Shown piece after piece: positions 23,091-54,795 of a stretch of 64,000 nt of DNA. Source of the stretch: Mesorhizobium sp. (GTDB lineage: Bacteria > Pseudomonadota > Alphaproteobacteria > Rhizobiales > Rhizobiaceae); contig SAQL01000006.1 of NCBI GenBank assembly GCA_004020645.1, positions 62,001-126,000 on the forward strand. Direction: 5' to 3'. The notes under the pieces were generated by a model that worked only from the letters and a program-made list of their open reading frames with translations, did no database searches and was not told where the DNA came from. How positions within the stretch are numbered: position 1 is the stretch's first letter; each line of letters starts with the position of its first letter. The translations under genes and the position numbers were made by a program.

Positions 23091-24596
23091 TCAGCCCTTG
23101 GCGACGAGATCGTCGACCTGGGTTTTCAGAGCGTCGAGCGACTCCTTGGCCGAGCCCGACTGGCCGGCGAAGTATTTGCCCAGCGCAACCGGGATCATGT
23201 CGCTCGAGAGTTCTGCCCATGCCGGCAGGTCGGGCTCGGATCCCATGTAGTTGGCGATGGTGTCGCGCACGACCGGCAAATGGCGGGTCGTGCCGGCGCC
23301 GACACGCGCATTGGCCAGCACGCGCGGATCGTCATAGACGCTGGTGCGCGTTGGCCCCGTACCGCCACCCAGAACGGTTATCAGCGCCTGGGTATCGGCT
23401 GAGGTCGCCCATTGCATGAAAATCCAGGCAGCATCCGGGCTCTTCGAATATTTCGACACCGCGAGCGAAGAACCGCCCTGGTGACCAACGCCCGGGATTT
23501 CGCCGAATCCGGTCTGCTCTACCGTGCGCAGCGTGGCGGCAGGTTTCGGCGGAACCATCGCTTCCATCAGGCCGGAGACCTTGGAGGCCTTGGGATCATC
23601 GAAGAACGGGAAGAATTCGCCCCAGGACAGCATCGAGGCGGCGACGCCCTGGCCGACCGACTGGCCCTCGCCATCCCATGTCCAGCCGTCGACGCCGGGC
23701 GGCATCGTCGCCTTGAGCTTGTCCCAGTAGGCCATGGCGGCCAGCCCAGCCTCGTCGTTGCCGGTGAATTTGCCGTCGGGGCCGAAAATCGAACCGCCAT
23801 GACCCCAAAGCCACGCCGTCCAATCGCATTCGAGGCTGTAGTGGCCCGATTTCATCTGGCCGCTGGTGCCGTACATGTTCGGGCCCTTGGCGTCGGTGAT
23901 CGCCGCGGACGCCTGCAGCAAATCGTCCAGCGTGGCCGGAGGCGGCAGCTTGAGCTCGTCCCAGACGTCCTTGCGGTATTGCATGATGAAGATCGGGATG
24001 TCGTAGGGCACGCCGACCATGCGGTCCTCGTACATGGCGATACCGTCGACGAGCGGCTTCAGGAAGTCGTCGATGTTGTAGTTCGGCATTGCCAGATCGG
24101 CGTTCTTGAGCTGCTCGCGCGGATCGAAGACGTCCTGGCTGAAGCTCGCCGCCCAGCTCTGGTCGATATAATAGAGGTCGTAAGTGCCGAGGCTCGACGC
24201 CACGTCGAGCGTCAGCTTCTGCAGCACCTGCTCGAGCGGCAGCACTTCGATCTCGACCTTGATGCCGGTAGCCTCCTCGAAATACTGCTTGAGCTGCGTG
24301 GCGATGGCATTCGACGGCGGCGTCGATTCGGTAGCGAGACGGAGCGTCGTTCCGGCAAAGGGCTTGCCGACGTCCGAGAGCCACTTGGTGATTTCGGCGC
24401 TGGGCTTTAGTTCCTGTTCCTGTGCCGATGCCTGGCTGATGCCGTAGAACGGACGTCGTCCCAAGCCCATGCCGAGCGCGCCGGCGCCGAGGCCGAGGAT
24501 GCTTGCTGCGCGAAGAAACGAGCGCCGATCCATCTGTCCGCGAACGAAGCGGTCGGTGACAGAGGCAAGATGCGCCTTTCTGATGCTGTCTTTCAT
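23091..24596 (-). CDS. ABC transporter substrate-binding protein (family 1 type), Tat signal
   Basis: This 501-aa periplasmic binding protein delivers a sugar or polyol to its importer. The N-terminus carries a twin-arginine-type signal, DRRSFLRAASILGLGAGALG (residues 23-42). Matching blocks include GTTLRLATESTPPSNAI near residue 80 and PYDIPIFIMQYRKDVWDELK near 200. Its length and Tat signal resemble the longer rhizobial CUT1 binding proteins of polyol systems. The ATG at 24596 has GGAGG upstream. It is the third gene of the operon, after both permeases, which is an uncommon order. Confidence 0.9.
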   Translation of the reverse strand: MKDSIRKAHLASVTDRFVRGQMDRRSFLRAASILGLGAGALGMGLGRRPFYGISQASAQEQELKPSAEITKWLSDVGKPFAGTTLRLATESTPPSNAIATQLKQYFEEATGIKVEIEVLPLEQVLQKLTLDVASSLGTYDLYYIDQSWAASFSQDVFDPREQLKNADLAMPNYNIDDFLKPLVDGIAMYEDRMVGVPYDIPIFIMQYRKDVWDELKLPPPATLDDLLQASAAITDAKGPNMYGTSGQMKSGHYSLECDWTAWLWGHGGSIFGPDGKFTGNDEAGLAAMAYWDKLKATMPPGVDGWTWDGEGQSVGQGVAASMLSWGEFFPFFDDPKASKVSGLMEAMVPPKPAATLRTVEQTGFGEIPGVGHQGGSSLAVSKYSKSPDAAWIFMQWATSADTQALITVLGGGTGPTRTSVYDDPRVLANARVGAGTTRHLPVVRDTIANYMGSEPDLPAWAELSSDMIPVALGKYFAGQSGSAKESLDALKTQVDDLVAKG

Positions 24597-39588: not shown

Positions 39589-40584
39589 CTATTTCTTGCC
39601 GAGCTTGGCGACGGCGCGGTCGATTGCGGAGACATCCCAGAAGTCTTCGACCTTGAGGCTCGCGGGATCGCCTTCGATCTGGCCGGCAAGGCTGAAGAAG
39701 GCAAAGTCGTCTTTAGCCGCATCCGCTCCGCCGCCATTCAGGGCAAGGCTGCCGGCTTCCGCGGTTTCCTTGTAGTATTCGGTGATTTCGCTGTCCGCCT
39801 CCGCGCCGAGATCCGGCAGCAGTTTGTACTTGTTGCGGAGCTCGACCGCGACAGCCGGATTCGCGGTTATTTCCCGCGCGGTCTTCATCAGTTCCTCGAC
39901 CAGGATGTCGACGTCGGCGGCGTTGTTCTTCAGATAGTCTGCGGTCGCGAAAAGCGCTTCGTCCGAGGCCCCGAGATCCTCGACCGGCAGAACGATGAAC
40001 TTGCCGGGGGCTTCGGCCTCGAGCGCGCGCCTGTTGGCGGCATCGACGATCGACGCCTTGATGGTCCCCTGGAGCAGCGCATTGCGGCGAACCTCGGAAC
40101 CCGGGACATAGCTGATGTTGCCGAGCTTGATGCCGTGGTTTTTCGCCATCAGGAGCATGACAGCCTCGGTGCCGGAGCCGCGCGCCTGAACGGCGACTTC
40201 CTGCCCGTCGAGATCCTTCCATTCCTTGTAGAATTCGCTGTTGACGACAGGGAAGAAGCGCAGCGTCGATATCTGCGCGAAGATGCGGATCGGCACGCCG
40301 ACCTTCTGGATCAGAGTGTAGGGAGCGCCAATGCCAACATCGGCCTGGCCGCCGACAATCGCCTGGGCTGCCAAATCCTCGTCATTGAGAACAATGAGCT
40401 CGACATTCACGCCGCGTTCCTTGGCGCGCTCTATCGCGGCGAGCGTCTGGATGGATTCGATCCCGGGAAGGTCGCCGAAGGCGATGCGCATGTCGCCCGC
40501 ATTTGCGGCCGACAGGGGCAGTGACCATGCCAGAGCCGCGGCGAAAGCGGTGGCAAGGATAGTACGTCTGGTCATGCTGGCCAT
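39589..40584 (-). CDS. ABC transporter substrate-binding protein, nitrate/taurine (NMT1) type
   Basis: The 331-aa periplasmic protein has a Sec-type signal (MTRRTILATAFAAALAWSLPLSAANA). The mature part (GDMRIAFGDLPGIESIQTL, then GGQADVGIGAPYTLIQK and QARGSGTEAVMLLMAKNHG) follows the NMT1/SsuA fold. The ligand is unknown; the enzymes of the operon suggest an organic acid. I chose the ATG at 40584 since GGGAGGA is at proper distance; an ATG at 40590 is too close to it. It leads the seven-gene minus-strand operon. Confidence 0.9.
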   Translation of the reverse strand: MASMTRRTILATAFAAALAWSLPLSAANAGDMRIAFGDLPGIESIQTLAAIERAKERGVNVELIVLNDEDLAAQAIVGGQADVGIGAPYTLIQKVGVPIRIFAQISTLRFFPVVNSEFYKEWKDLDGQEVAVQARGSGTEAVMLLMAKNHGIKLGNISYVPGSEVRRNALLQGTIKASIVDAANRRALEAEAPGKFIVLPVEDLGASDEALFATADYLKNNAADVDILVEELMKTAREITANPAVAVELRNKYKLLPDLGAEADSEITEYYKETAEAGSLALNGGGADAAKDDFAFFSLAGQIEGDPASLKVEDFWDVSAIDRAVAKLGKK

Positions 40585-50424: not shown

Positions 50425-50461
50425 ATCAGCCAAACTGATGCAATCTGATGGGACTGCTGAT
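50425..50461 (+). promoter_or_regulatory. Candidate LacI-type operator with phased CTGATG repeats
   Basis: ATCAG (50425-50429) and CTGAT (50435-50439) are inverted, and CTGATG occurs three times at 50435, 50445 and 50456, spaced by about one helical turn. The site is in the 275-base gap upstream of the importer operon, which is otherwise empty of clear genes. Confidence 0.4.
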
Positions 50462-50626
50462 GGCGCCTTGTCGCGCGCCAACTACCACTGGAAAATGGAG
50501 GCTTGCCATATGTCGAAAAAGCGGATGCTCTGATGCATCCAGATCGGCGCTGGCAAGAAATACGATCAGGGTTTGCCGTGATCGTCGCCGGAGGTGGAGG
50601 AAGTCTTCAAAATGGGAGGAAATCAA

Positions 50627-51559
50627 ATGCTGACAAGGCTACGACTATTTGTATTCGGCTTGATCGTGGCGCTGGCCATCCCAGCGGCGGCACAGGCCAA
50701 GACCTTCTACTGGATTTCGCATGGCGGCCCGGCCGATCCGGTCTGGACCTACTTCCTCGCCGGCGCCAAGCAATGGGCGACAGACACCGGCAACACCGTC
50801 AACACCTCGTTCCACAATGGCGACGTGTCGTCCCAGCAGGAGGCTGTTCGCGCGGCCATCGCCGCCAAGGCGGACGGCATCACCACCACCAGCCCCGACC
50901 CGGGCAGCCTTATCGAGCTCGCTAAGGAAGCACGGGCGGCAAACATCCCGATCATCAATTTCAACACGCCCGATCCGAAGGCGGACTTCAACGCCTATGT
51001 TGGCGGCGACAACGTCACCTTCGGCAAGAACTGGGCGCAGTATCTGGTCGACAAGGGCCTGGTGAAGAAGGGCGATTTTGTCTGGATGCCGGTCGAAATC
51101 CCGGGCGCCACCTATGGTGTTCAGGAAGAAGAAGGCATCAAGAGCGTCTTCGAGCCGCTCGGCATCACTTATGAAATCACCGAAGCCACGCTCGATCAGG
51201 CCGAAGCGATCAACCGCATGGTCGACTACCTCACCGCCAACAGGGCCAAGGTCAAGGCGATCATCGGTCTCGGCGACCTGGTGACCGGCTCGATCAAGCG
51301 GGTGTTCGACCAGGCCGGCATCAAGCCGGGTGAAATCCCGGTCGTCGGCTGGGGCAACTCGCTCGACACCACCCAGGAGGTGCTGACCGGCTACGTCAAT
51401 GCCGCCCAATGGCAGGATCCGCAGGCGACCAGCTATGTGGCGCTTTCGATCGCCAACATGGCCGCCAGCGGCATTCCGCCCGGCTTCGACGTGATCACCG
51501 GCGCACTCTACGAAAAGGACACCGCACAGGTCTACGACGACATCCTGTCCGGAAAATAA
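50627..51559 (+). CDS. Sugar ABC transporter substrate-binding protein (FrcB/RbsB type)
   Basis: The 310-aa periplasmic protein has a Sec signal (about residues 1-24, ending AAAQA) and a type-1 binding fold. The mature start KTFYWISHGGPADPVWTYF is typical of CUT2 sugar-binding proteins, with TSPDPGSLIELAKEARAANIPIINFN and GWGNSLDTTQEV further on. The ATG at 50627 is preceded by GGGAGGA. The ligand is a monosaccharide or related compound, not resolved. A strong hairpin follows the gene. Confidence 0.9.
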   Translation: MLTRLRLFVFGLIVALAIPAAAQAKTFYWISHGGPADPVWTYFLAGAKQWATDTGNTVNTSFHNGDVSSQQEAVRAAIAAKADGITTTSPDPGSLIELAKEARAANIPIINFNTPDPKADFNAYVGGDNVTFGKNWAQYLVDKGLVKKGDFVWMPVEIPGATYGVQEEEGIKSVFEPLGITYEITEATLDQAEAINRMVDYLTANRAKVKAIIGLGDLVTGSIKRVFDQAGIKPGEIPVVGWGNSLDTTQEVLTGYVNAAQWQDPQATSYVALSIANMAASGIPPGFDVITGALYEKDTAQVYDDILSGK

Positions 51560-51679: not shown

Positions 51680-52666
51680 GTGGAAAATAGCTCCATCATC
51701 CAACGCTCGATCGCCAGGCCGGAATTCGGGCCCTTCGTGCTGCTTGTCGTCGAGCTCGCTGTGTTCTGGGGGTTCAACCACGACTTCCTGTCGCCGCAGA
51801 ACATCAGCAACATACTGGCCTTCACGGTCGAGCTCGGCCTGATCGCGCTGGCGATGACGCTGTTGATGACTTCAGGCGAATTCGACCTCTCGGTCGGATC
51901 GCTGTTCGGTTTCTCGCCCGTCTTGATGTGGACGCTCTTCAACAGCGGCCTCACCTCGCTGGAAGCCGGCTTTATCGTAGCCTTGCTGGTTGCCGCCTTC
52001 ATCGGGCTGGTCAATGGCTGGTTCGTGACGCAACTCAAGATTCCTTCCTTCTTGGTAACGCTCGGCATGCTGCTGGTGGTGCGCGGCACCGCTCTGTTCG
52101 TCACCAGCGGATTTCCGCAACGCACCTGGAGCGCCGAAGGCAGCTGGCTCGCCGAGGCGCTGGTCGGCGATTTCTTCATCGGGCCGTTCCGCATCTATAT
52201 GTCGCTGTTCTGGTTCATCGCAGCCGCGATCGCACTCGGCTACGTGCTGACACAGAGCCGGACCGGCAACTGGATCCAGGCGGCCGGCGGCAACCCCAAT
52301 GCGGCAAGGGCGCGCGGTGTCAATGTCAGCGGCGTCAAGATCGGCCTGTTCATCCTGTCGTCGATCATGGCTTCGCTTGCCGGCGTCATCAGCTCGCTGC
52401 GCACCTCGGCGGCCAACCCGAACAGCGGCACCGGCTACGAGCTCGAAGTCATCGCCATGGTGGTGATCGGCGGCACGGCGCTGACCGGCGGACGCGGCAC
52501 CATCATCGGAACCGTGCTCGGCATCCTAATCCTGCGCGTGATGCGCAACGGCATCGTGCTGATCGGCGTGCCAGGGCTTGCCTACAACATCTTCATCGGC
52601 GCGATCATCCTCGGCATGATGGCGCTCCACTCGTGGCTGGAACGCCGGCATCAGGCGGGGACTTGA
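51680..52666 (+). CDS. Sugar ABC transporter permease (FrcC/RbsC type)
   Basis: The 328-aa permease has eight to ten helices. LMTSGEFDLSVGSLFGFS near residue 64 and GGNPNAARARGVNVSGVKI near 205 are the CUT2 permease marks; VIGGTALTGGRGTIIGTVLG follows. The start is GTG at 51680 (MENSSIIQRS). It is followed after 3 bases by the ATPase gene, so the two are coupled. Confidence 0.92.
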   Translation: MENSSIIQRSIARPEFGPFVLLVVELAVFWGFNHDFLSPQNISNILAFTVELGLIALAMTLLMTSGEFDLSVGSLFGFSPVLMWTLFNSGLTSLEAGFIVALLVAAFIGLVNGWFVTQLKIPSFLVTLGMLLVVRGTALFVTSGFPQRTWSAEGSWLAEALVGDFFIGPFRIYMSLFWFIAAAIALGYVLTQSRTGNWIQAAGGNPNAARARGVNVSGVKIGLFILSSIMASLAGVISSLRTSAANPNSGTGYELEVIAMVVIGGTALTGGRGTIIGTVLGILILRVMRNGIVLIGVPGLAYNIFIGAIILGMMALHSWLERRHQAGT

Positions 52667-52669
52667 ACC

Positions 52670-53464
52670 ATGGCCGAACCGCTTGTCCGCATGGAAAACA
52701 TCCGCAAGTCCTACGGGCGTGTGCAAGCGCTGGTAGACGCCAATTTCCATGTCAATGAAAGGGAGATCGTCGGTCTGCTCGGCGACAATGGCGCCGGCAA
52801 ATCGACGCTGATCAAGGTGCTGTCGGGTGCGGTCCCGCTGACCAGCGGCGACATCTTCATCCGCGGCAAGAAGGTGGATTTCCGCAGCACCAGCGACGCC
52901 ATCGCCCACGGCATCGAGACGATCTACCAGGACTCCGCACTGGTCACGCAATTGTCGATCGCGCGCAACTTGTTCCTCGGGCGGGAGCCGATCAAGCCGC
53001 CGCGTTTCCTCAACCGTATGGACCAGGAGGCTATGAACGTGGTCGCCCGCGATCTGCTCAAGCAGGTCGGCATCTCGAAGAACATCCCGCCGACCACACC
53101 GATCGGCTCGCTCTCCGGCGGCGAGCGGCAGGCCGTGGCGATCGCACGCGCCATGCATTTCGATAGCGACCTCATCATCCTCGATGAGCCGACCAACAAT
53201 CTCGGCGTCGCCGAGACGCAAGGTGTGCTGAGCTTCGTGCGCAGCGCCCGCGATTCGGGCCATTCCTGCATCTTCATCGCCCACAACATCCATCACGTCT
53301 TCCAGGTGGTCGACCGCATCGTCGTCATGCGCCGCGGCAAGGTGGTTGCCGACGATATCGACCCGAAGAACACCAGCGTCACTGAGGTCGAACGGATTAT
53401 CACCGGCATGTCCGACGAGGAGATCCGTGACGCCATCGTGCAGGGGAAACAATCGCAGGCCTGA
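52670..53464 (+). CDS. Sugar ABC transporter ATP-binding protein, single-domain FrcA type
   Basis: The 264-aa ATPase has one nucleotide-binding domain: Walker A (GDNGAGKST), Q-loop region (IYQDSALV), signature (LSGGERQAVAIARA) and Walker B (LIILDEPTNNL). Most CUT2 systems use a double-domain protein of about 500 aa (RbsA); the single-domain form is known from FrcBCA of Sinorhizobium, which takes up fructose, mannose and ribose. So the importer is of FrcBCA type, but its ligand is not proven. Confidence 0.93.
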   Translation: MAEPLVRMENIRKSYGRVQALVDANFHVNEREIVGLLGDNGAGKSTLIKVLSGAVPLTSGDIFIRGKKVDFRSTSDAIAHGIETIYQDSALVTQLSIARNLFLGREPIKPPRFLNRMDQEAMNVVARDLLKQVGISKNIPPTTPIGSLSGGERQAVAIARAMHFDSDLIILDEPTNNLGVAETQGVLSFVRSARDSGHSCIFIAHNIHHVFQVVDRIVVMRRGKVVADDIDPKNTSVTEVERIITGMSDEEIRDAIVQGKQSQA

Positions 53465-53521: not shown

Positions 53522-54556
53522 ATGACTGCGACAATGAAAGCCACCGTTGCGGACATCGCCAGAAGCTGCGGGCTGTCGACCGCGACGGTCGACCGGGTGC
53601 TGAACAGCCGGCCGGGCGCCAGCGCCGCCAACCGGCAGCGCGTGATGGAGGCGGCCAAGCAGCTCGGCTATTTGCCGGTCGTGGATCAGGTCGTGTTGCC
53701 CTCGCGGCCGGCGCATCTCGAGTTCTTCCTGCCGATCGGCTCCAATGCCTTCATGATGGATCTGGCAAATCATATCGAGGATTATGCGGCACGCCTGCCG
53801 CTTGTCGCCTCCTGCCGCATCCACAAGCTTGCCGGGATCTCGCCGAACGCGTTGCAGGCGGCAGTCGAAAACCTCTCGCTCAAGGCAAACGGCGTCGGCG
53901 TCATTGCGATCGATCACCCGAGAACGCGCAACATCCTGCGCGAGATCGTCGAGGCCGGCATCCGCCTGGTCACGCTGGTGTCGGACGTTCCGGGCGCACC
54001 GCGATCGGCCTATGTCGGCATCGACAACCGTGTCGCCGGGCGCACCGCAGCCCTTTTGATGGGACGTTTCCTGGGCGGGCGCACGGGCCATCTGGCGATG
54101 GTCGTCGGCTCACGCTCCTATCGCGGACATGAGGAACGCGAAATGGGCTTTCGCTCGGTGCTCAGCGAGGAGTTCCCCAATCTGACCGTGACCAGCGCCG
54201 TCGAGATCAACGACGAGCCTGATATCAGCTACACGGCGACGATGAAGGCGCTGCACAACGAGCCGGAACTGCTCGGCATCTATTGCGTCGGCGCCGGACG
54301 CTCTGGCGTGGCGAAAGCGCTGCTGGAAGCCAAGCCGCAAAGGAAGCCGGTGTTCGTCTGCCACGACCTGACGAGGGCGACACGCGGCTATCTCGTCGAC
54401 GATCTGCTCGATGTCGTGATCGACCAGAATGCACGGCTGATCGCCGAGCAATCGGTCATTCGCCTGCTCGGCTCGATCGCTTCCTCGGCGCCCTATCTGA
54501 CGCGGAAATTCATCGAACCGCGCCTTGTCTTCAAGGAAAACGTGCCCGTCCAGTGA
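53522..54556 (+). CDS. LacI-family transcriptional regulator
   Basis: The 344-aa protein has the LacI helix-turn-helix and hinge helix (ATVADIARSCGLSTATVDRVLN, then NRQRVMEAAKQLGY) and a periplasmic-binding-like sensor domain with GVGVIAIDHPRTRNIL and the YVGIDNRVAGRTAALLMGRFL block. It is the last gene of the plus-strand pentose-type cluster. It probably controls the importer and the XylX-like gene through the CTGATG-type site upstream. Two start ATGs (53522, 53534) are possible. Confidence 0.92.
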   Translation: MTATMKATVADIARSCGLSTATVDRVLNSRPGASAANRQRVMEAAKQLGYLPVVDQVVLPSRPAHLEFFLPIGSNAFMMDLANHIEDYAARLPLVASCRIHKLAGISPNALQAAVENLSLKANGVGVIAIDHPRTRNILREIVEAGIRLVTLVSDVPGAPRSAYVGIDNRVAGRTAALLMGRFLGGRTGHLAMVVGSRSYRGHEEREMGFRSVLSEEFPNLTVTSAVEINDEPDISYTATMKALHNEPELLGIYCVGAGRSGVAKALLEAKPQRKPVFVCHDLTRATRGYLVDDLLDVVIDQNARLIAEQSVIRLLGSIASSAPYLTRKFIEPRLVFKENVPVQ

Positions 54557-54643
54557 TGCCGCGCAACGGCCACGGTCACTTGCCCCGATGGTTAAAATTC
54601 GGTTGATACCGCGAATCTGCGCATCTGCTATGCATCTTTTGCT

Positions 54644-54664
54644 ATTGCCGAATCATTGGGCAAT
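54644..54664. promoter_or_regulatory. Inverted repeat upstream of the sRNA gene
   Basis: ATTGCC (54644-54649) and GGCAAT (54659-54664) are perfect arms with a 9-base spacer. They end about 15 bases before the first sRNA hairpin, where promoter elements are expected (possible -10 CGATAG at 54665-54670). A regulator site or a promoter element is possible. Confidence 0.35.
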
Positions 54665-54675
54665 CGATAGTTTCG

Positions 54676-54795
54676 CAGGTGTCGGCCATCTACTCCTCCC
54701 AGATGCGATGCCGACGCTGAGTGCGGCACACCTCCTCCCGTGCCGTATTCGAAATCGAGCCCGCTGCCACCTCCTCCCGGCAGCGGGCTTTTTTT
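54676..54795 (+). ncRNA. Three-hairpin sRNA of alpha-r14 / cuckoo (CCUCCUCCC) type
   Basis: Three hairpins follow one another, each with an anti-Shine-Dalgarno word in its loop. Hairpin 1: GTCGGC-CATC (54681-54690) pairs with GATG...GCCGAC (ending 54715), loop TACTCCTCCCA. Hairpin 2: CGGCAC (54724-54729) with GTGCCG (54740-54745), loop ACCTCCTCCC. Hairpin 3: GCCCGCTGCC (54759-54768) with GGCAGCGGGC (54779-54788), loop ACCTCCTCCC, followed by seven T residues: a good Rho-independent terminator. Size about 115-120 nt and three CCTCCTCCC loops match, from memory, the alpha-r14 family (NfeR1 in Sinorhizobium) that represses mRNAs at their ribosome binding sites. The 5' end is estimated. It lies alone between the LacI and TetR genes. 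Confidence 0.85.

What the first reader, a model, noticed from the sequence alone, without database searches (positions are those of the whole stretch)
54676..54795. Unflanked sRNA gene with three anti-Shine-Dalgarno loops (alpha-r14/cuckoo type)
Seen directly: three perfect or near-perfect hairpins in 115 bases, all with CTCCTCCC exposed in the loop, and the last one ending in a seven-T tract. The loops are complementary to GGGAGGAGG-like ribosome binding sites. From known families: the alpha-r14 sRNAs of rhizobia (NfeR1 in Sinorhizobium) and the CCUCCUCCC RNAs of Rhodobacter have this design and act on many transporter mRNAs. Inference: it may repress ABC genes in this same window, several of which have GGAGG or GGGAGGA sites.
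Basis: partly seen in the sequence, partly recalled or inferred. Interest (0 to 1): 0.75.

Follow-up and report, generated by a model that had tools for sequence, protein, structure and literature searches.

The report
Three-loop αr14 small RNA, Mesorhizobium
This is a real gene for a known type of regulatory RNA that probably blocks ribosome binding on nutrient-importer messages; what looks new is its fixed place beside a sugar-importer operon and its unusual conserved promoter.

Summary
Window 54677-54794 (+) matches Rfam RF02344 (ar14) at 76.4 bits (cut-off 58.8): three hairpins, an anti-Shine-Dalgarno motif in each loop, a T7 tail. The genome is a nifH-positive Mesorhizobium with eight ar14 hits, seven over the cut-off. 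An alignment of 68 distinct relatives shows compensatory changes in hairpins 1 and 2; hairpin 3 is almost invariant. The gene and its upstream DNA match in 134 of 146 genus genomes. In 20 of 20 inspected it lies directly behind the same ABC sugar-importer operon and LacI-type regulator gene, and the operon's binding-protein gene has GGGAGGA before its start. Importer binding-protein genes of this genome carry GGGAGGA more often than other genes, even among genes with a GGAGG core. Two further points: the promoter has two TGC-N11-GCA dyads, the signature published for NtrC on nfeR1, in 54 of 54 window-type copies examined and 0 of 32 top-scoring other ar14 copies; and a second window-type copy often lies near nifH. 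Verdict: new member of a known family, in a possibly new regulatory setting.

The parts
54677..54794 (+). αr14 (ar14) sRNA gene, three hairpins
   Evidence: Rfam RF02344, 76.4 bits, E 5.3e-12; fold z -6.7
54678..54718 (+). hairpin 1, loop motif CTCCTCCC (54693-54700), two alternative inner registers
54719..54750 (+). hairpin 2, loop motif CCTCCTCCC (54731-54739); 7 of 11 pairs with two-sided changes
54757..54795 (+). hairpin 3, loop motif CCTCCTCCC (54770-54778), with T7 tail; probable intrinsic terminator; nearly invariant among the 68 aligned sequences
54618..54634 (+). dyad 1, TGC-N11-GCA (TGCGCATCTGCTATGCA), about -59 to -43
   Evidence: two such dyads in 54 of 54 window-type copies
54646..54662 (+). 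dyad 2, TGC-N11-GCA (TGCCGAATCATTGGGCA), inside the core promoter
   Evidence: two such dyads in 54 of 54 window-type copies
54645..54673 (+). proposed core promoter: TTGCCG, 17 nt, TAGTTT; start expected near 54677-54680 (inference)
   Evidence: conserved block; the E. coli-type consensus scan found none
53522..54556 (+). LacI-type regulator gene directly upstream
   Evidence: PF00356 and PF13407; same place in 20 of 20 genomes
50627..51559 (+). ABC sugar-type binding protein; candidate target; ribosome site GGGAGGA at 50614-50620
   Evidence: PF13407; GGGAGGA in 20 of 20 genomes
51680..53464 (+). permease (51680-52666) and ATPase (52670-53464) of the same importer
   Evidence: PF02653, PF00005; syntenic in 20 of 20
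39589..40584 (-). NMT1-type binding protein; candidate target, GGGAGGA before the start
23091..24596 (-). SBP_bac_8 binding protein; candidate target, GGAGGAG before the start

Best explanation
The locus is a stand-alone, terminator-ended gene for an αr14-family trans-acting sRNA of about 118 nt. Its three loops present (CC)UCCUCCC, which pairs with GGGAGGA-type Shine-Dalgarno sites. It most likely keeps ribosomes off mRNAs for nutrient importers, above all periplasmic binding proteins of ABC systems; one likely target is the importer operon next to it. Shown here: family membership, conserved and covarying structure, conserved upstream DNA and synteny, and enrichment of complementary sites on binding-protein genes. 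Inferred: transcription, pairing in the cell, repression, and control by a protein that binds the two promoter dyads.
For: Rfam match; fold z -6.7. Covariation on 68 distinct rows: 95.2% of cells paired against 32.7-45.7% when partners are slid; 12 of 37 pairs changed on both sides, a number 0 of 500 shuffles reach. All three CTCCTCCC motifs intact in 66 of 68 rows. Gene plus upstream DNA matches in 134 of 146 genus genomes. Seven or more bases of GGGAGGAGGU at the start in 34 of 84 binding-protein genes against 3 of 60 TetR and SDR genes, p 6e-7; 34 of 82 without two LacI-like members. GGGAGGA in 25 of 84 against 35 of 1339 other predicted genes; among genes with a GGAGG core 25 of 42 against 35 of 156, p 9e-6. 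Neighbouring importer operon and its GGGAGGA site conserved in 20 of 20. Published: S. meliloti NfeR1 of this family silences two binding-protein mRNAs and ntrB through these motifs (PMC10746234, passages; PMC7143759, passages).
Against: No transcript data. In S. meliloti only one of six copies was reliably detected by Northern (PMC7143759), so this copy may be weakly expressed. AbcR sRNAs also regulate nutrient uptake (PMC10746234), so the GGGAGGA enrichment need not be due to this RNA. ntrB pairs weakly here. The consensus scan found neither promoter nor terminator (it allows loops of 3-8 only, hairpin 3 has 10). One covariation measure, further pair types, did not exceed shuffles (142 of 500), and shuffles do not allow for kinship of the rows. 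Pairing scores ignore mRNA structure, and start codons were chosen partly by ribosome-site strength.
Confidence: 0.85

Rival explanations
1. A silent or dying paralogue: one of several αr14 copies, kept for no function, with the tandem DUF1127-linked pair on contig C54 doing the work.
For: The genome has 8 ar14 hits, and the C54 pair scores highest. In S. meliloti only one of six copies was reliably detected (PMC7143759). Two sibling copies, L006 and L007, have damaged loop motifs.
Against: The window copy keeps all three loops, its upstream blocks and its place across the genus, and compensatory changes point to selection on its stems.
Confidence: 0.1
2. A sponge that binds another GGAGG-bearing sRNA and not mRNAs.
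For: A sponge acting on an sRNA family is known in an alphaproteobacterium (CrfA in Caulobacter, PMC12559287, passages).
Against: The loops match mRNA ribosome sites, and mRNA silencing is shown for NfeR1 (PMC10746234). No candidate partner sRNA was sought here.
Confidence: 0.04
3. A cis element, or the long 3' untranslated region of the importer-LacI operon, not an independent gene.
For: It follows the LacI gene on the same strand in 20 of 20 genomes.
Against: A conserved promoter-like block lies between the LacI stop codon and the RNA, and two copies with the same double dyad in other genera showed no LacI relative in the stretch fetched (L361, L362).
Confidence: 0.06

Closest known systems
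NfeR1 (SmelC397/Smr14C2) of Sinorhizobium meliloti, αr14 family
   Same: Three hairpins with anti-SD loops, several copies per genome, complementarity to binding-protein mRNAs.
   Different: The LsrB box TGCA-N6-GCAT reported at -72 to -60 is absent from the 85 nt scanned (0 of 54) and TGC-N11-GCA occurs twice, at about -57 and -29, where nfeR1 has it at -116 to -101 (PMC10746234). Loop 1 is CUCCUCCC. Hairpin 3 is almost invariant. Pairing with ntrB is weak.
RFMSmelA075/RFMSmelA099 families (PMC3927594, passages)
   Same: Three or four hairpins, CCUCCUCCC loops, several copies, at least one on each S. meliloti replicon.
   Different: The importer-LacI synteny and the double dyad are not in the passages I saw.
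CcsR1-4 RNAs of Rhodobacter sphaeroides, co-transcribed with the DUF1127 gene ccaF1 (PMC10253847, passages)
   Same: Related class by the literature; that CcsR loops carry CCUCCUCCC is recalled, not seen in a call.
   Different: The window copy has no DUF1127 gene beside it; the tandem pair L001/L002 of this genome does.
AbcR1/AbcR2 sRNAs
   Same: Regulate ABC transporter mRNAs (abstract of PMC3712013 in a search listing).
   Different: A separate family; ar14 is the only Rfam match over threshold in the window.

Membership tests
αr14 / Rfam RF02344 | covariance-model score over the gathering cut-off | tested here: met
   76.4 against 58.8 bits, model positions 1-123
αr14 / Rfam RF02344 | three hairpins with an unpaired anti-SD motif in every loop | tested here: met
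   loop 1 has CUCCUCCC, one base short of CCUCCUCCC
αr14 / Rfam RF02344 | last hairpin followed by a U tail | tested here: met
   T7 at 54789-54795
αr14 / Rfam RF02344 | stems vary while pairing is kept | tested here: inconclusive
   met for hairpin 2 and the outer stem of hairpin 1; hairpin 3 has 1 of 12 pairs with a two-sided change
αr14 / Rfam RF02344 | transcribed as a separate RNA of about 120 nt | not testable with these tools
   no RNA data for this genome
NfeR1 promoter type | LsrB box TGCA-N6-GCAT upstream | tested here: not met
   0 of 54 window-type copies, 85 nt upstream scanned
NfeR1 promoter type | NtrC signature TGC-N11-GCA | tested here: inconclusive
   present twice in 54 of 54, but near -57 and -29, not at -116 to -101; binding untested
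DUF1127-linked CcsR-like locus | DUF1127 gene directly upstream | tested here: not met
   the upstream gene is LacI-type; DUF1127 genes precede the L001 copy

The most novel reading that the evidence does not exclude
In Mesorhizobium one αr14 lineage has become a fixed companion of a sugar-importer operon. A dimeric regulator, perhaps NtrC, controls it through two TGC-N11-GCA operators, one of which overlaps the core promoter, and the RNA tunes importer translation to nitrogen status. A copy of the same lineage with a different promoter travels with the symbiosis genes, giving nodule bacteria a separately controlled version of the same regulator.
Probability: 0.2. Interest if true: 0.6.

Novelty: new member of a known kind. 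Interest (0 to 1): 0.4.

Why it matters
It offers a concrete, testable case of how a multi-copy anti-SD RNA family may divide labour: the same loops, but distinct promoters and genomic addresses (importer-linked, DUF1127-linked, near nifH). The excess of GGGAGGA over other GGAGG-core ribosome sites on importer genes suggests that these sites are tuned to such RNAs and not only to 16S rRNA.

Tried and rejected
LacI control of the sRNA: the importer promoter has a conserved triple CTGATG repeat that the sRNA upstream DNA lacks, and the double dyad persists in L361 and L362 where no LacI relative was found in the stretch fetched. LsrB control by the published box: not found. ntrB as a target: best loop energies -6.2 and -6.8 kcal/mol at the chosen start, against -14 to -18 for the best importer sites. 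Protein-coding role: one-base insertions and deletions occur between relatives, so the overlapping mechanical ORFs are not conserved frames. M. huakuii sRNA survey (PMC5596092): the 40 candidates of its Table 1 include no ar14 entry (section 5), so it gives no expression evidence.

By title six of these are Mesorhizobium, one 'Rhizobiaceae bacterium' and one 'Bacterium M00.F.Ca.ET'; the other 72 are presumably chance. In other genera of the family, 2 of 13 loci inspected (L361, L362) keep both dyads at the same spacing.

Pfam tallies of GGGAGGA genes (36 of 39 scanned) and of a strong-SD control set (80 of 164) are descriptive only, because the tool shows the first 25 families. The pattern GGGAGGA-N4-10-ATG occurs four times in the window, one of them the complement of the sRNA itself, against 0.95 expected; 3 of 100 shuffles reach four.

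Extra window-type copies and nifH: two or more copies in 61 of 100 genomes with a full or partial nifH match and in 10 of 46 without (10 of 33 after dropping 13 small genomes, p 0.003); total ar14 counts no longer differ after that drop (p 0.12). Kinship is not corrected, and copy counts are capped at five per genome.

Full report
Observation. The sequence shows CTCCTCCC three times, each in the loop of a predicted hairpin, and a T7 run at 54789-54795. The fold is far more stable than shuffles, z -6.7. Rfam's ar14 model matches 54677-54794 on the plus strand at 76.4 bits, cut-off 58.8.

Organism and copies. The genome (7.66 Mb, 241 contigs) has eight ar14 matches, seven over the cut-off. All 146 genus genomes have an ar14 match at E 0.001, 145 over the cut-off, median five matches. 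The genome carries nifH over the cut-off. The eight copies are a window-type group (window, L004, L006, L007), a tandem pair (L001, L002) of which L001 lies directly behind DUF1127 genes, one copy behind a phasin gene (L005) and a weak one at 33.8 bits (L008).

Structure under selection. I aligned 68 distinct window-type sequences, from the 30 best loci, 40 hand-picked further loci, own-genome paralogues and two plasmid records. The named structure pairs in 95.2% of cells, against 32.7-45.7% when partners are slid; 12 of 37 pairs have two-sided changes, reached by 0 of 500 shuffles. They lie in hairpin 2 (7 of 11 pairs) and the outer stem of hairpin 1 (4 of 9); the inner helix of hairpin 1 has 0 of 5 and hairpin 3 has 1 of 12. 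Against: further pair types did not exceed shuffles (142 of 500), and the shuffles do not allow for kinship. Twelve rows have a differently built hairpin 1 that does not fit the inner helix. RNAalifold finds two-sided changes in 12 of its 31 pairs. All three loop motifs are intact in 66 of 68 rows; the exceptions are own-genome paralogues L006 and L007.

Setting. Gene plus upstream DNA matches in 134 of 146 genus genomes; eight of the 12 misses have genomes of 4.8 Mb or less. In 20 of 20 genomes inspected (of 134) the order is binding protein, permease, ATPase, LacI-type regulator, sRNA, and the binding-protein gene has GGGAGGA before its start in 20 of 20. The TetR gene beyond is at a variable distance and was not found in one of the 20.

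Promoter. Two dyads TGC-N11-GCA, 28 bp apart, occur in 54 of 54 window-type copies examined (the window and 53 others, 85 nt upstream scanned). None of 21 other paralogues has two (5 have one), and none of the 32 top-scoring other ar14 copies (L001, L002, L009-L038; 130 nt scanned) has one; of the 12 of these printed, 10 show the end of a DUF1127-like frame just upstream. In the window the motif occurs 20 times in 64 kb, below the shuffled mean of 33.7, so it is not an over-common motif. In other genera of the family 2 of 13 loci inspected (L361, L362) keep both dyads at the same spacing; in L361 the arms of dyad 1 differ together (TGCA...TGCA against TGCC...GGCA), as expected for a dimer's site. 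TGC-N11-GCA is the signature published for NtrC at nfeR1, there at -116 to -101 (PMC10746234, passages). Which protein binds here is inference. The TTGCCG-N17-TAGTTT core is my reading; the consensus scan found nothing.

Targets. Start regions of 84 importer binding-protein genes of the own genome (all 25 PF00496 matches, the best 30 of 43 PF13407 and the best 30 of 36 PF13416; one locus without a usable start dropped) were compared with 60 controls (the best 30 of 42 TetR and 30 of 81 SDR matches). A run of seven or more bases of GGGAGGAGGU occurs in 34 of 84 against 3 of 60; without two LacI-like members of the PF13407 set, 34 of 82. The 16S pairing of binding-protein genes is also stronger (mean -9.2 against -6.6 kcal/mol), so I repeated the test within genes that share a GGAGG core: GGGAGGA occurs in 25 of 42 binding-protein genes and 35 of 156 other predicted genes, p 9e-6; overall 25 of 84 against 35 of 1339 (1.66 Mb, home-made gene calls; binding proteins of other families remain among the others). 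So importer genes favour the variant that fits the loops. Other RNAs, such as AbcR, may share responsibility. In the window four of 58 predicted genes carry GGGAGGA: 50627, 40584, 26417 (ABC permease) and 30972 (FGGY kinase).

Copy near nifH. Among 28 nifH-positive genomes of five contigs or fewer that I picked, 21 have a second window-type copy. It lies 85-218 kb from a nifH in 17, 325 and 404 kb away on the same replicon in two, and elsewhere in two (distances worked out by hand; in G074 and G077 the second copy is a partial match, and several genomes have further, more diverged matches elsewhere). None of 10 nifH-negative genomes in the same set has a second copy. Symbiosis islands spread between strains, so these are not independent events, and on single-replicon genomes only the distance is informative. 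In S. meliloti each replicon is reported to carry at least one copy of a related RNA (PMC3927594, passages).

Literature seen: passages of PMC10746234, PMC3927594, PMC7143759, PMC12559287 and PMC10253847; passages and section 5 of PMC5596092. Reinkensmeier and Giegerich 2015, the cuckoo RNA paper, is not held. That the double dyad or the importer linkage may be undescribed rests only on these and on the searches.

Judgement. The locus is ordinary in kind and well explained; its conserved setting makes it worth a test.

Noticed in passing
L001 1501-1965 (own contig C54): A tandem αr14 pair lies directly behind two small DUF1127 genes, the arrangement reported for Rhodobacter ccaF1-CcsR.
   Followed up: partly
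50435-50462 (upstream of the binding-protein gene 50627): Three CTGATG repeats, starts 10 and 12 bp apart, are conserved with few changes in the 21 aligned importer promoters: a possible operator of the LacI-type regulator or another protein.
   Followed up: partly
own contigs C207 and C212 (L006, L007): Two paralogues of the window copy have damaged loop motifs and may be decaying.
   Followed up: partly
G133 contig 1, 343440-343772: A partial and a full window-type copy lie in tandem on the replicon that also carries nifH.
   Followed up: no
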